The translations under genes and the position numbers were made by a program. Of a stretch of DNA of 64,000 nucleotides, positions 8,628-14,917 are shown piece after piece. The DNA comes from Natronobeatus ordinarius. Lineage in GTDB: Archaea; Halobacteriota; Halobacteria; Halobacteriales; Natrialbaceae. The stretch covers positions 1-64,000 of the forward strand of contig NZ_CP101456.1 in assembly GCF_024362485.1 (NCBI RefSeq). The letters run 5' to 3'. How positions within the stretch are numbered: position 1 is the first letter of the stretch; the number at the start of each line of letters is the position of its first letter. The notes beneath the pieces were generated by a model. It saw only the letters and a program-made list of their open reading frames with translations. It was not told the DNA's origin and ran no database searches.

Positions 8628-8862
8628 ATGCGGACGATCGACGTTCCACCGGACGTATACGACGCTTTGAACGTCCCGGAAGATCAGCGCGAGGACGTCA
8701 TCCGGCGGGAACTGGCGGTGTCGCTGTACCGAGAAGGGATCCTCTCGTTCGGAAAGGCGCGCGAACTCGCCGGGCTGTCACGGCGGGAGTTCCACCGCCT
8801 GCTCGGCGACCGCGAGGTCGATCGTCACTACACCGACGAGGAGCTCGCAGACGACCTCGAGT

Positions 8863-8876
<14 letters not shown>
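8628..8876 (+). CDS. UPF0175 family protein, putative antitoxin
   Basis: An 82-residue protein with the UPF0175 pattern: an N-terminal strand (MRTIDVPPDVYDALNVPED), then RREL.VSLYREGILSFGKARELAGLSRREFHRLLGDR, which is a helix-turn-helix. The family normally sits in front of a DUF3368 PIN-like toxin, as here; the two frames overlap by 14 bases, indicating coupled translation. Expected to bind DNA and neutralise the partner. The toxin gene's 3' end is altered by the TnpB element, so the state of the pair is worth noting. Confidence 0.85.
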
Positions 8877-10611
<1,735 letters not shown>

Positions 10612-10616
10612 CTGTA

Positions 10617-10632
10617 ACCTCACATATGAGGT
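10617..10632. promoter_or_regulatory. Palindrome just upstream of tnpB
   Basis: ACCTCA-CATA-TGAGGT, a 6-bp inverted repeat directly before the tnpB start. It could be a left-end structure of the element or an operator. Confidence 0.4.
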
Positions 10633-11701: not shown

Positions 11702-12148
11702 ATGGCCGACGAGGGACCGACTGCATCGAACGTCCAGTCTGAGGCGATCGATTTCGAGGGGATTCGATCGGTGCTCGCTGACAACGACGTTCAGTACGCC
11801 GTCGTATTCGGATCGGTTGCTCGAGGCGAAGACACGGCGACCTCGGATATTGACCTCTGTCTCCGGTTCTCCGATGACCTTTCCCCGCGAGAACGGTTCG
11901 ATCGACGGAACCGGATCGATTCGGTCGTCCAGCGATACACAACGCAGTTCGTTGACGTAAGTGACGTGGAGGCACTCCCCGACGACGTTGCCTTGAACGC
12001 GCTCCGTGAGGGGGTCGTGATCTATGGCAACGAGACGATGAAAGCGACGGATGAACAGCGCCTAACGGACCGCGTGAGGAGCTCGAAAGACGAACACACC
12101 CGGGAGCGTCGTGAGTTCATCGATCGACTCGCTGAAGGAAACGTCTGA
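11702..12148 (+). CDS. mntA: MntA-type nucleotidyltransferase antitoxin
   Basis: A 148-residue minimal nucleotidyltransferase: FGSVARGEDTATSDIDL (Gly37-Ser38, Asp49, Asp51 are the catalytic signature), followed by a strand with QFVDVSDVEALPDDV. In characterised MntA/HepT modules the nucleotidyltransferase AMPylates and blocks the HEPN ribonuclease. hepT follows after 5 bases but is interrupted by a MITE. The C-terminal helix SKDEHTRERREFIDRLAEG is complete. A near-identical but truncated second copy lies at 19195. ATG 11702 chosen because homology with that copy starts here; the open frame extends upstream to 11579 without similarity. Confidence 0.9.
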   Translation: MADEGPTASNVQSEAIDFEGIRSVLADNDVQYAVVFGSVARGEDTATSDIDLCLRFSDDLSPRERFDRRNRIDSVVQRYTTQFVDVSDVEALPDDVALNALREGVVIYGNETMKATDEQRLTDRVRSSKDEHTRERREFIDRLAEGNV

Positions 12149-12153
12149 TCCGG

Positions 12154-12699
12154 ATGGTCGAGGAAGATATCGTCGTCGATCGCCTCGAGCACATCAATCA
12201 GTACACTATAGTAACCGTTGAAAGTCATTGCACACCCGGTCACGACCATCGGCGGTCAGCCTCGTCGACAAGGTCGAGGCTGACCGCTCGGCTGTGACCG
12301 GGTGTAAATCGTTTCAACGAGTACTATAACGAACTCAAACAGATGCGACGGCTCTCCAAAGCGGAGTATCTCGAGGATGTCGTTCACCAGCGTGCAGTCG
12401 AACGATCACTGATGAACGCGATCCAGTCCTGTATCGATCTGGCGGCACACATCCGAGCAGCTGAGGATCTCGGGACTACAGCGACGTCGCGAGAAGAGAT
12501 CGAAGCCCTCGTCGACGCTGGCATCGTGACGCCTGAGACGGGAACGAAGCTGGCAGATGCGGTCGGGCTTCGAAATCTTCTCGCACATCGGTATGGTGAC
12601 GTCGATCACGACCTCATCTACGACGTTCTCGAGAGTGATCTGCAGTGGTTTGACCGATTTCAGCAGGAGGTCGCAACGTGGTTTCGAGAGGAGCGGTAG
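12154..12699 (+). pseudogene. hepT: HepT (HEPN/DUF86) toxin gene interrupted by a MITE near its 5' end
   Basis: The gene starts at ATG 12154 (MVEEDIVVDRLEHINQY), 5 bases after mntA, is interrupted at codon 18-19 by the 118-bp element at 12209-12326, and resumes as NELKQMRRLSKAEYLED. Removing the element with one TA joins Y-T-N-E-L-K in frame and gives a 141-residue HepT. The HEPN active-site motif Arg-x4-His-x-Tyr is present (RNLLAHRY, residues 100-107 of the restored protein). Reading into the element meets a TGA. An internal ATG at 12343 could yield a 118-residue form lacking the first helix, so partial function cannot be excluded. Confidence 0.85.
12209..12326. mobile_element. MITE, family A copy 1 (118 bp, TA target duplication)
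   Basis: Non-coding palindromic element beginning TAGTAACCGTTGAAAG and ending CGTTTCAACGAGTACTA, with inverted ends, flanked by TA on both sides (12207-12208 and 12327-12328). The centre is a second inverted repeat (GGTCAGCCTCG / CGAGGCTGACC). It sits inside hepT. A TA duplication is the hallmark of IS630/Tc1-mariner transposases, which probably mobilised it; no such transposase is in the window. Confidence 0.85.
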
Positions 12700-12728: not shown

Positions 12729-13112
12729 GATCGTGTCACGCACGAGTCTCACGTCGCCCTCGAGGGGGCACGCATCGCGGTGCTCGGCCTCGCGTCCAAA
12801 CCCCGGACCGACGACATTCGAAACTCGCGGGCGATCCCGGTGATCGAGGGGCTTCAGGCCCGTGGCGCCGACGTCGTCGCCTACGACCCCGTGGCGAACG
12901 ACCCCATGCAGGAACGCTTCCCCGCCCTCGAGTACGCCACCTCGGCGGCCGGCGCGCTCGAGGGCGCCGACGGCGCCGTCGTCGTCACCGACTGGGATGA
13001 GTTCGCGACGCTCGATGCGGAGTTCGACGCGATGAACACGACGGTCGTCGTCGACGGCCGCCGGATCGTCCAACGCCGAGATGAACTCACGTACGAGGGG
13101 CTGACCTGGTAA
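12729..13112 (+). pseudogene. C-terminal fragment of a UDP-glucose/nucleotide-sugar 6-dehydrogenase (copy 1)
   Basis: The frame encodes only the last third of a UGDH-family enzyme: [41 protein letters not shown], then [19 protein letters not shown] to the natural C-terminus. The NAD-binding and catalytic domains are missing. The first residues overlap the junction just after hepT (12699). The frame opens at an ATG at 12678 that lies inside hepT and is unlikely to be real. Related enzymes make UDP-glucuronate for glycan pathways, fitting the locus at 1-6 kb. Copy 2 lies at 14666. Confidence 0.75.
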
Positions 13113-13413: not shown

Positions 13414-13926
13414 TCAACGATCGCAGTTGCAGACGCCGCCTTCGCGGACCTGGTTGGTCACGTGCCGGTGGATTTCGCGAGGCAACCGGTGCATGGTTTC
13501 GGCCTGCCGCTTCGTTGGATGGCGCCCACCGTAGTAGCTGTCCGTCCGATTGTCGCCGTACAGGGCTTTGAGCTCGCGCGCCAGTTCCCGGGTGAAGAGG
13601 CCAAACCGTGTCGCCCGGTCGTAGCAACGCTCGTGCGAGTCCGTCTGGAAATCGCGCAACTCGTCGCCACCCTCTGCGATGGCGAACGCCTCCAGTGATC
13701 GCTCGATGGTGCCGAAGCACAGCTCGACGACGGCAGTGTAGTAGCCATCGTCCTCGAGCTCGTCGGCGACGGCGAGGAGCCGACACCCTTTGGTGAGTTG
13801 CGTCTTCCAGTCGGCGTCCGTGTTGAGCTCCGGTTCTCGTGTCGGAATGCCATGACCCTCCTCGTTGAAGGCGTCGACGGCCGCATCGACCGCCTCCCTG
13901 ATGGCGTTCGGGTCACTCACCGGCAT
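13414..13926 (-). CDS. HEPN-like protein, partner of the wHTH-nucleotidyltransferase
   Basis: A 170-residue, mainly helical protein. Features are a Trp-Lys-rich first helix (ADWKTQLTKGCRLLAVADELE), a central helix (YYTAVVELCFGTIERSLEAF) and a C-terminal segment with Arg, YYGG, QAETMHRL and REIHRHV. The spacing resembles HEPN proteins that pair with minimal nucleotidyltransferases; REIHRH also fits the Arg-x4-6-His ribonuclease motif. Its start overlaps the upstream nucleotidyltransferase stop by 14 bases, so the two are co-translated. ATG 13926 chosen over the adjacent GTG 13929. Assignment to HEPN rests on context and pattern and needs a profile search. Confidence 0.6.
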   Translation of the reverse strand: MPVSDPNAIREAVDAAVDAFNEEGHGIPTREPELNTDADWKTQLTKGCRLLAVADELEDDGYYTAVVELCFGTIERSLEAFAIAEGGDELRDFQTDSHERCYDRATRFGLFTRELARELKALYGDNRTDSYYGGRHPTKRQAETMHRLPREIHRHVTNQVREGGVCNCDR

Positions 13927-14605
13927 CACCGTGTAAAATCATTCCACGGACGGTGTCGAACTCCTCCGTTCGATGGACGGCGATGCCGTCGCGGAGGATT
14001 TCTCGAAGCTCGTCTGCGTAGTTTGGAACGGCTTGCAGGCCCTCGACGTCGATCTCGAAGGCATAACGGTCGCCGTCGAACGCGTCTTCTTCGAGAGATT
14101 GCCTGACGCGGTTCGCCCGCCGCTGGTTGCCCATCCTGTCCTCGCGCACTAACGCCCAGAGGTCGACGTCGCTACGGCGGTCGGCCTCACCGCGAGCAAC
14201 GCTTCCATAGAGGACGATGCCGAGAACACCGTCGAGTTCGTCCAGCAACGCCTCCGTCGCTGCCTTCACCGGGGCGTGGAACGCCGACTGCGGGATTTCG
14301 AGGTAGGGGTCGTCCGGCAGGATCAACCGGTCGCGGTTGATCTGTACGAGGCGACGCGTTCCGTCGCGTTCCTCGACGACGAGTCCATTGTTGGAGAGGA
14401 CGTCGACCGTCTTGGTGATCGTCGGCCGCGTGTAATCGACCGCCTTGGCGAGGTCCGTCATCGAAAACGATTCGTCGCGGTGGCGCGTTAAAAAGAGAAG
14501 GACGTCGTCCGTGGCCCCACCCCTGAACAACCGGTCGTCCCAAAGGGGTATATCGACCGTTATCTGTGTCCTATCGTCTGAGTTACTGTTCGACTTCGTT
14601 TTCAT
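13913..14605 (-). CDS. Winged-helix/nucleotidyltransferase fusion, putative antitoxin
   Basis: This 230-residue protein joins an N-terminal winged helix (about 30-85: DDVLLFLTRHRDESFSMTDL, TRPTITKTVDVL, GLVVEERDG) to a minimal nucleotidyltransferase domain (about 115-225) with the signature YGSVARGEADRRSDVDLWAL. The fusion would let one protein both AMPylate a HEPN partner and repress its own promoter. It is first in a two-gene overlapping operon with the HEPN-like gene at 13414. The AT-rich promoter region lies just upstream (14606-14665). The start has no close in-frame alternative. Confidence 0.8.
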   Translation of the reverse strand: MKTKSNSNSDDRTQITVDIPLWDDRLFRGGATDDVLLFLTRHRDESFSMTDLAKAVDYTRPTITKTVDVLSNNGLVVEERDGTRRLVQINRDRLILPDDPYLEIPQSAFHAPVKAATEALLDELDGVLGIVLYGSVARGEADRRSDVDLWALVREDRMGNQRRANRVRQSLEEDAFDGDRYAFEIDVEGLQAVPNYADELREILRDGIAVHRTEEFDTVRGMILHGDAGE

Positions 14606-14665: not shown

Positions 14666-14917
14666 CAAGGTTCCGACGTCGTCGCTCACGATCCGGTCGC
14701 GAGTGATGCGATGGCCGAGCGGTTCCCCGACCTCGAGTACGCCGATTCGGCCGCAGAGGCACTCGAGGGGGCCGACGGCGTCCTCGTCGTCACCGACTGG
14801 GCCGAGTTCGCCGACCTGGACGAGGAGTTTCACTCGATGAATACGAAGTTCGTCGTTGTCGGTCGACGGATCGTCGACCGCCGGGACGGCATGACCTACG
14901 AGGGACTGACCGGGTGA
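14666..14917 (+). pseudogene. C-terminal fragment of a nucleotide-sugar 6-dehydrogenase (copy 2)
   Basis: Reading begins in mid-domain with [19 protein letters not shown], continues to [19 protein letters not shown] and ends at the natural terminus TYEGLTG. It matches the last part of copy 1 at about three quarters of positions, so the two come from distinct paralogues, not a recent duplication. No start codon or NAD-binding part is present. It lies directly beyond the promoter of the wHTH-nucleotidyltransferase gene, as if that module had replaced the rest of the gene. Confidence 0.7.

What the first reader, a model, noticed from the sequence alone, without database searches (positions are those of the whole stretch)
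12154..12699. A MITE has cleanly interrupted hepT of an MntA/HepT toxin-antitoxin module
Deleting 12209-12326 plus one of the two flanking TAs rejoins codons Tyr-Thr-Asn-Glu-Leu-Lys in frame and yields a 141-residue HepT with its Arg-x4-His-x-Tyr motif. As it stands translation stops inside the element, while mntA is intact. An internal ATG (12343) could still give a shortened HepT, so the module is either disarmed or reprogrammed. It is an unusually clear case of a MITE acting on a toxin gene.
Basis: seen in the sequence. Interest (0 to 1): 0.72.

Follow-up and report, generated by a model that had tools for sequence, protein, structure and literature searches.

The report
Toxin gene broken by transposable element
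In this salt-loving archaeon a 118-base "hitch-hiker" transposon, present in about 40 copies, has recently jumped into the toxin half of a toxin-antitoxin pair and silenced it while leaving the antitoxin intact; this is a clean example of an ordinary kind of event, and relatives have often lost the same toxin in other ways.

Summary
A 118-bp MITE (12209-12326) with a TA target-site duplication (12207-12208, 12327-12328) sits in codon 18/19 of hepT (12154-12699); mntA (11702-12148) is intact. The genome has about 40 copies of the element; one, 520 kb away with different flanks, is identical, so the jump is recent. A likely mobiliser is in the same genome: a 1,057-bp IS630-family element (five near-identical copies) with matching terminal bases, TA duplication and target preference. 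Insert plus one TA is 120 bp, so the frame is kept, but the element carries one in-frame TGA (12295-12297). The "reprogrammed" reading is weak: a start at ATG 12343 removes all of helix alpha1, and that ATG is uncoupled from mntA. Among 37 orthologous loci, 22 pairs are intact, 15 have a broken hepT (8 with mntA still intact), and none has an intact hepT with a broken mntA. The MITE is therefore one of many independent toxin knock-outs. Best reading: a disarmed type VII toxin-antitoxin module with an orphan MntA. A clear instance of a known phenomenon.

The parts
11702..12148 (+). mntA, intact 148-aa nucleotidyltransferase antitoxin; GSx10DxD motif as GSVARGEDTATSDID
   Evidence: NCBIfam NF047752, 61.2 bits vs cut-off 60
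12154..12206 (+). hepT, 5' part: first 17 codons and two bases of codon 18 (Thr); N-terminal part of helix alpha1
   Evidence: (the 18-residue stretch matches the orthologues at 55-83% identity)
12207..12208 (+). left copy of the TA target-site duplication
12209..12326 (+). 118-bp MITE with terminal inverted repeats TAGTAACCGTTGAAA / TAGTACTCGTTGAAA; folds as one long hairpin
   Evidence: RNA fold -74.8 kcal/mol, z -11.9
12295..12297 (+). the only in-frame stop codon (TGA) that the element brings into the hepT frame
12327..12328 (+). right copy of the TA target-site duplication
12329..12699 (+). hepT, 3' part, open to its stop; carries the RNase/AMPylation motif RNLLAHRY (Rx4HxY)
   Evidence: PF01934, 4.3e-24; NF047751, 110.8 bits vs cut-off 60
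12343..12345 (+). internal ATG (Met24 of the ancestral numbering), the possible start of a short HepT lacking helix alpha1

Best explanation
A type VII HepT/MntA toxin-antitoxin module whose toxin gene was recently knocked out by a non-autonomous IS630-type MITE. The IS630-family transposase, most likely supplied in trans by the element resident in five near-identical copies in this genome, inserted the MITE at a TA in codon 18/19 of hepT. Ribosomes entering at 12154 read 17 native codons plus about 30 element-derived codons and stop at TGA 12295-12297, so no HepT is made. The 122-nt hairpin in the transcript would further hinder downstream expression (inferred). MntA is left as an orphan antitoxin with no toxin of its family in the genome. 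Shown: element, copies, duplication, frame, stop, intact mntA, matching uninterrupted homologues, partner IS, recurrent toxin loss in relatives. Inferred: that the resident IS moved the MITE, and that the product is inactive.
For: About 40 copies at 86-100% identity; an identical copy at C1:534780-534901 with unrelated flanks; TA duplication; IS630 elements (HTH_33 plus DDE_3) whose left end TATAGTAACCGTT is identical to the MITE's over 13 bases, with TA duplication and the same C-TA-G target tendency. Uninterrupted orthologues continue across the site with the same residues and spacing. TGA stop. Helix alpha1 = residues 4-23. Only one HepT-like match in the genome. In 37 orthologous loci the toxin is broken in 15, and the antitoxin only ever together with it. 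MITE copies avoid genes (at most 5 of 41 look intragenic against 63% of random positions), and the hepT copy is the clearest intragenic one, as expected if hepT is dispensable.
Against: The 3' part is still open and keeps the Rx4HxY motif, as it would if a short product were made, although a recent insertion predicts the same. No strain of this species with the empty site was available. No expression data. The MITE and the IS share only their outermost bases.
Confidence: 0.87

Rival explanations
1. Reprogrammed toxin: translation from ATG 12343 makes a 118-aa HepT lacking helix alpha1 that is still an RNase or still binds MntA, so the module works with altered strength.
For: The ATG exists and the 118-aa frame is open with the catalytic motif intact; Pfam and NCBIfam still recognise it.
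Against: All of alpha1 (4-23) is lost; alpha1 contacts the tyrosine loop and forms part of the dimer interface in the Legionella HEPN. No ribosome-binding-like sequence directly upstream, and no coupling to the mntA stop 195 nt away. Other broken hepT genes in relatives do not share a preserved short frame: L109 lost the catalytic His, L113 has a further frameshift, L124/L125 end at codon 45, L135 and L143 have stops further downstream.
Confidence: 0.07
2. Read-through: the insert keeps the frame (120 bp) and has a single TGA, so occasional read-through yields a HepT with a 40-residue loop in helix alpha1.
For: Frame kept, exactly one stop.
Against: A 40-residue insertion in the middle of alpha1 is unlikely to fold; a single stop in this frame is the family norm (30 of 35 copies), so it is not a special adaptation. 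Recoding signals were not looked for.
Confidence: 0.02
3. The orphan MntA is kept by selection as an anti-addiction factor that neutralises HepT toxins arriving on plasmids or other elements. This adds to the best explanation rather than replacing it.
For: mntA is intact in 8 of 15 loci where hepT is broken; HepT/MntA pairs also occur on a haloarchaeal plasmid (L148, L149); the model is proposed for other TA families (PMC2654758).
Against: In the other 7 loci mntA is decayed too, which fits neutral decay after toxin loss; no selection test was made.
Confidence: 0.15

Closest known systems
Type VII HepT/MntA (HEPN/MNT) toxin-antitoxin module, e.g. SO_3166/SO_3165 of Shewanella oneidensis
   Same: Both proteins, gene order mntA-hepT, GSx10DxD and Rx4HxY motifs; solved homologues 5yep, 6m6u, 7bxo
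   Different: hepT is split by a transposable element, so the module is probably not a working toxin-antitoxin pair
IS630/Tc1-mariner-type MITEs (TA target)
   Same: 118 bp, terminal inverted repeats, TA duplication, many copies, no coding capacity, resident IS630-family partner with matching ends
   Different: No name could be assigned here (ISfinder not available); related but distinct short families share the termini in other Natrialbaceae
IS-inactivated or decaying chromosomal TA loci (hok-sok copies of E. coli K-12, ccdO157 decay; PMC2654758)
   Same: Toxin function lost by mobile-element insertion or point mutations in a chromosomal TA module
   Different: Archaeal type VII module; a MITE rather than a full IS; intact antitoxin left alone
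IS and MITE insertions in cas genes (PMC10359306) and a MITE in a Haloquadratum CRISPR array (PMC3119063)
   Same: Small mobile elements inactivating a host system
   Different: Target is a TA toxin

Membership tests
Type VII toxin-antitoxin HepT/MntA | MNT nucleotidyltransferase antitoxin with GSx10DxD | tested here: met
   GSVARGEDTATSDID; NF047752 61.2 bits vs cut-off 60
Type VII toxin-antitoxin HepT/MntA | HEPN toxin with Rx4HxY | tested here: met
   RNLLAHRY in the 3' part; NF047751 110.8 bits vs cut-off 60
Type VII toxin-antitoxin HepT/MntA | Complete toxin reading frame adjacent to the antitoxin | tested here: not met
   Stopped by TGA 12295-12297 inside the MITE; it is the remains of such a module
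Type VII toxin-antitoxin HepT/MntA | HepT toxicity neutralised by MntA AMPylation of the tyrosine | not testable with these tools
   needs an experiment
IS630-type MITE | Short, non-coding, terminal inverted repeats | tested here: met
   118 bp, inverted ends, hairpin
IS630-type MITE | TA target-site duplication | tested here: met
   35 of 41 copies; in hepT the uninterrupted orthologues agree with an insert of 120 bp including one TA
IS630-type MITE | Ends shared with an autonomous IS630 element in the genome | tested here: met
   TATAGTAACCGTT identical at the left ends; HTH_33 + DDE_3 transposase; the right ends agree less (TATAGTACTCGTT vs TATAGTAAAAATT)
IS630-type MITE | Mobilised in trans by that transposase | not testable with these tools
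   needs a transposition assay

The most novel reading that the evidence does not exclude
In haloarchaea the chromosomal HepT/MntA module is repeatedly converted to a stand-alone MntA by toxin knock-out, here by a MITE, and the orphan MntA is retained because it protects against HepT toxins carried by incoming elements.
Probability: 0.13. Interest if true: 0.6.

Novelty: new member of a known kind. Interest (0 to 1): 0.3.

Why it matters
It is a recent natural knock-out of a type VII toxin with the antitoxin left alone, in a family of archaea where the same toxin is lost again and again. It gives a ready test of whether orphan MntA proteins are mere leftovers or act as anti-addiction factors, and it identifies the likely autonomous partner of an abundant haloarchaeal MITE.

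Tried and rejected
Autonomous copy carrying the exact MITE ends: the nine single terminal repeats outside full copies turned out to be short deletion derivatives or decayed MITEs, with no transposase identified next to them; the best hits in other genomes also looked like MITEs. Programmed frameshift at codon 18/19, considered because two relatives have 1-bp deletions there: rejected, because most orthologues are in frame through the site. First intragenic test with 150-bp flanks failed its positive control because only 53 bp of hepT precede the insert; repeated with 60- and 90-bp flanks. The genome-contig scan returned no record of this genome. Paper searches found no report of this insertion.

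Full report
What is there. The window holds mntA (11702-12148) followed after 5 bp by hepT (12154-12699). Both are recognised above NCBIfam's curated cut-offs as type VII toxin-antitoxin proteins and carry the defining motifs (GSVARGEDTATSDID in MntA, RNLLAHRY in HepT). hepT is split by a 118-bp element at 12209-12326 flanked by TA on each side. In the frame of ATG 12154 translation meets one stop, TGA 12295-12297, inside the element; the frame is otherwise kept, because insert plus one TA is 120 bp.

The element is a MITE. About 40 near-full-length copies lie in the 4.2-Mb genome; the terminal pattern occurs 35 times on each strand and never in the reversed control. Of 41 copies examined, 35 have clean TA duplications and 31 are exactly 118 bp; the copy at C1:534780-534901 is identical to the one in hepT but has unrelated flanks, so both are recent insertions rather than a duplicated segment. 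As RNA the element folds into a single hairpin (-74.8 kcal/mol, z -11.9).

The likely mobiliser. A search for the IS630-type DDE domain found five near-identical copies (99.6-100%) and one older copy of an element of 1,057 bp (1,059 counted from TA to TA), with flanking TA. Its left end TATAGTAACCGTT is identical to that of the MITE over 13 bases including TA; the right ends agree over TATAGTA. Its transposase is split into an HTH part and a DDE part in overlapping frames. IS and MITE share a tendency to insert in C-TA-G. That this IS moves the MITE is inferred; haloarchaeal MITEs are known to share only a few terminal bases with the transposon that supplies the transposase (PMC3119063).

The empty site. 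Uninterrupted orthologues at roughly 60 to 79% identity continue across the insertion point with the same or similar residues, e.g. G032 ...VNQYTNELKQMRG..., Natrialba ...INQYTNECKEM.... The 5' part of the window's gene ends ...INQYT and the 3' part resumes NELKQMRR.

Does anything still work? AlphaFold2 of an intact orthologue (Natronolimnohabitans innermongolicus; mean pLDDT 91.9) puts helix alpha1 at residues 4-23. The insertion is inside it, and a start at ATG 12343 (Met24) removes it entirely. In the Legionella HEPN crystal structure alpha1, with alpha2 and the tyrosine loop, forms the dimer interface, and alpha1 residues contact the tyrosine loop (PMC11586414). The ATG lies 195 nt downstream of the mntA stop and has no ribosome-binding-like sequence directly before it, whereas in many relatives the mntA stop touches or overlaps the hepT start. 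A functional short HepT is therefore unlikely, though not excluded.

Context: the same toxin is lost repeatedly. Among 37 loci of this orthologous group (window included; second copies and a more distant subfamily left out), 22 have both genes intact. In 15 hepT is broken: with mntA intact in the window (MITE), L109 (1-bp deletion and loss of the catalytic His), L124 and L125 (stop after codon 44 and the rest missing; probably one event), L135 and L143 (in-frame stops), L145 (1-bp deletion near the start) and L154 (frameshift); with mntA also broken or absent in L106, L108, L113, L127, L128, L129 and L153. No locus has an intact hepT with a broken or missing mntA. Treating the loci as independent, the chance that all seven mntA losses fall among the 15 toxin-broken loci is about 6e-4 (my arithmetic); shared ancestry makes this optimistic, and some 1-bp indels in draft genomes may be sequencing errors. 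The pattern fits toxin first, antitoxin later, as expected for an addiction module.

Where the MITE otherwise sits. A codon-usage test on 60-bp flanks% of positions within genes and 63% of random window positions intragenic, but only 5 of 41 MITE copies, with the hepT copy by far the clearest. So the family is nearly confined to intergenic DNA, and hepT is a rare tolerated genic target.

Verdict. The module is most likely disarmed, not reprogrammed. Transposable elements and point mutations inactivating chromosomal TA toxins are known (PMC2654758), so this is a clean new instance of a known kind. The part worth following is the recurrent stand-alone MntA.

Noticed in passing
G000:C1:105200, 1984302, 3486201, 3613050, 3630162 (loci L089-L093): Five near-identical IS630-family elements whose transposase lies in two overlapping frames (HTH part and DDE part), which suggests a programmed frameshift.
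   Followed up: partly
L109 (G057) and L108/L130 (G043), codons 18-19 of hepT: Two relatives carry different 1-bp deletions within a few bases of the MITE insertion point; clustering of three independent breaks at codons 18-19 is unexplained and may be chance.
   Followed up: partly
window 13414-14605, minus strand: A second HEPN/MNT-like pair: an HTH-nucleotidyltransferase fusion followed by a 171-aa protein with no Pfam match that is widespread in relatives (37 of 61 genomes) and may be its HEPN-like partner.
   Followed up: partly
window 12756-13109 and 14711-14914, plus strand: Two C-terminal fragments of UDP-glucose/GDP-mannose dehydrogenase (PF03720) flank the second pair, pointing to repeated rearrangement here.
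   Followed up: no
window 9355-10623, minus strand: TnpB/OrfB (Cas12f-like) gene of an IS200/IS605-type element.
   Followed up: no
window 8629-9372, plus strand: A DUF3368 protein (PIN-like, from memory) preceded by a small ORF; looks like another toxin-antitoxin pair.
   Followed up: no
G000:C1:640032-640065, 1157162-1157189, 2692803-2692850: Very short MITE derivatives of about 28-48 bp that consist of little more than the two terminal repeats.
   Followed up: no
L066-L069 and other Natrialbaceae: A shorter (about 84 bp) MITE family with the same termini but a different core occurs in several genera.
   Followed up: no
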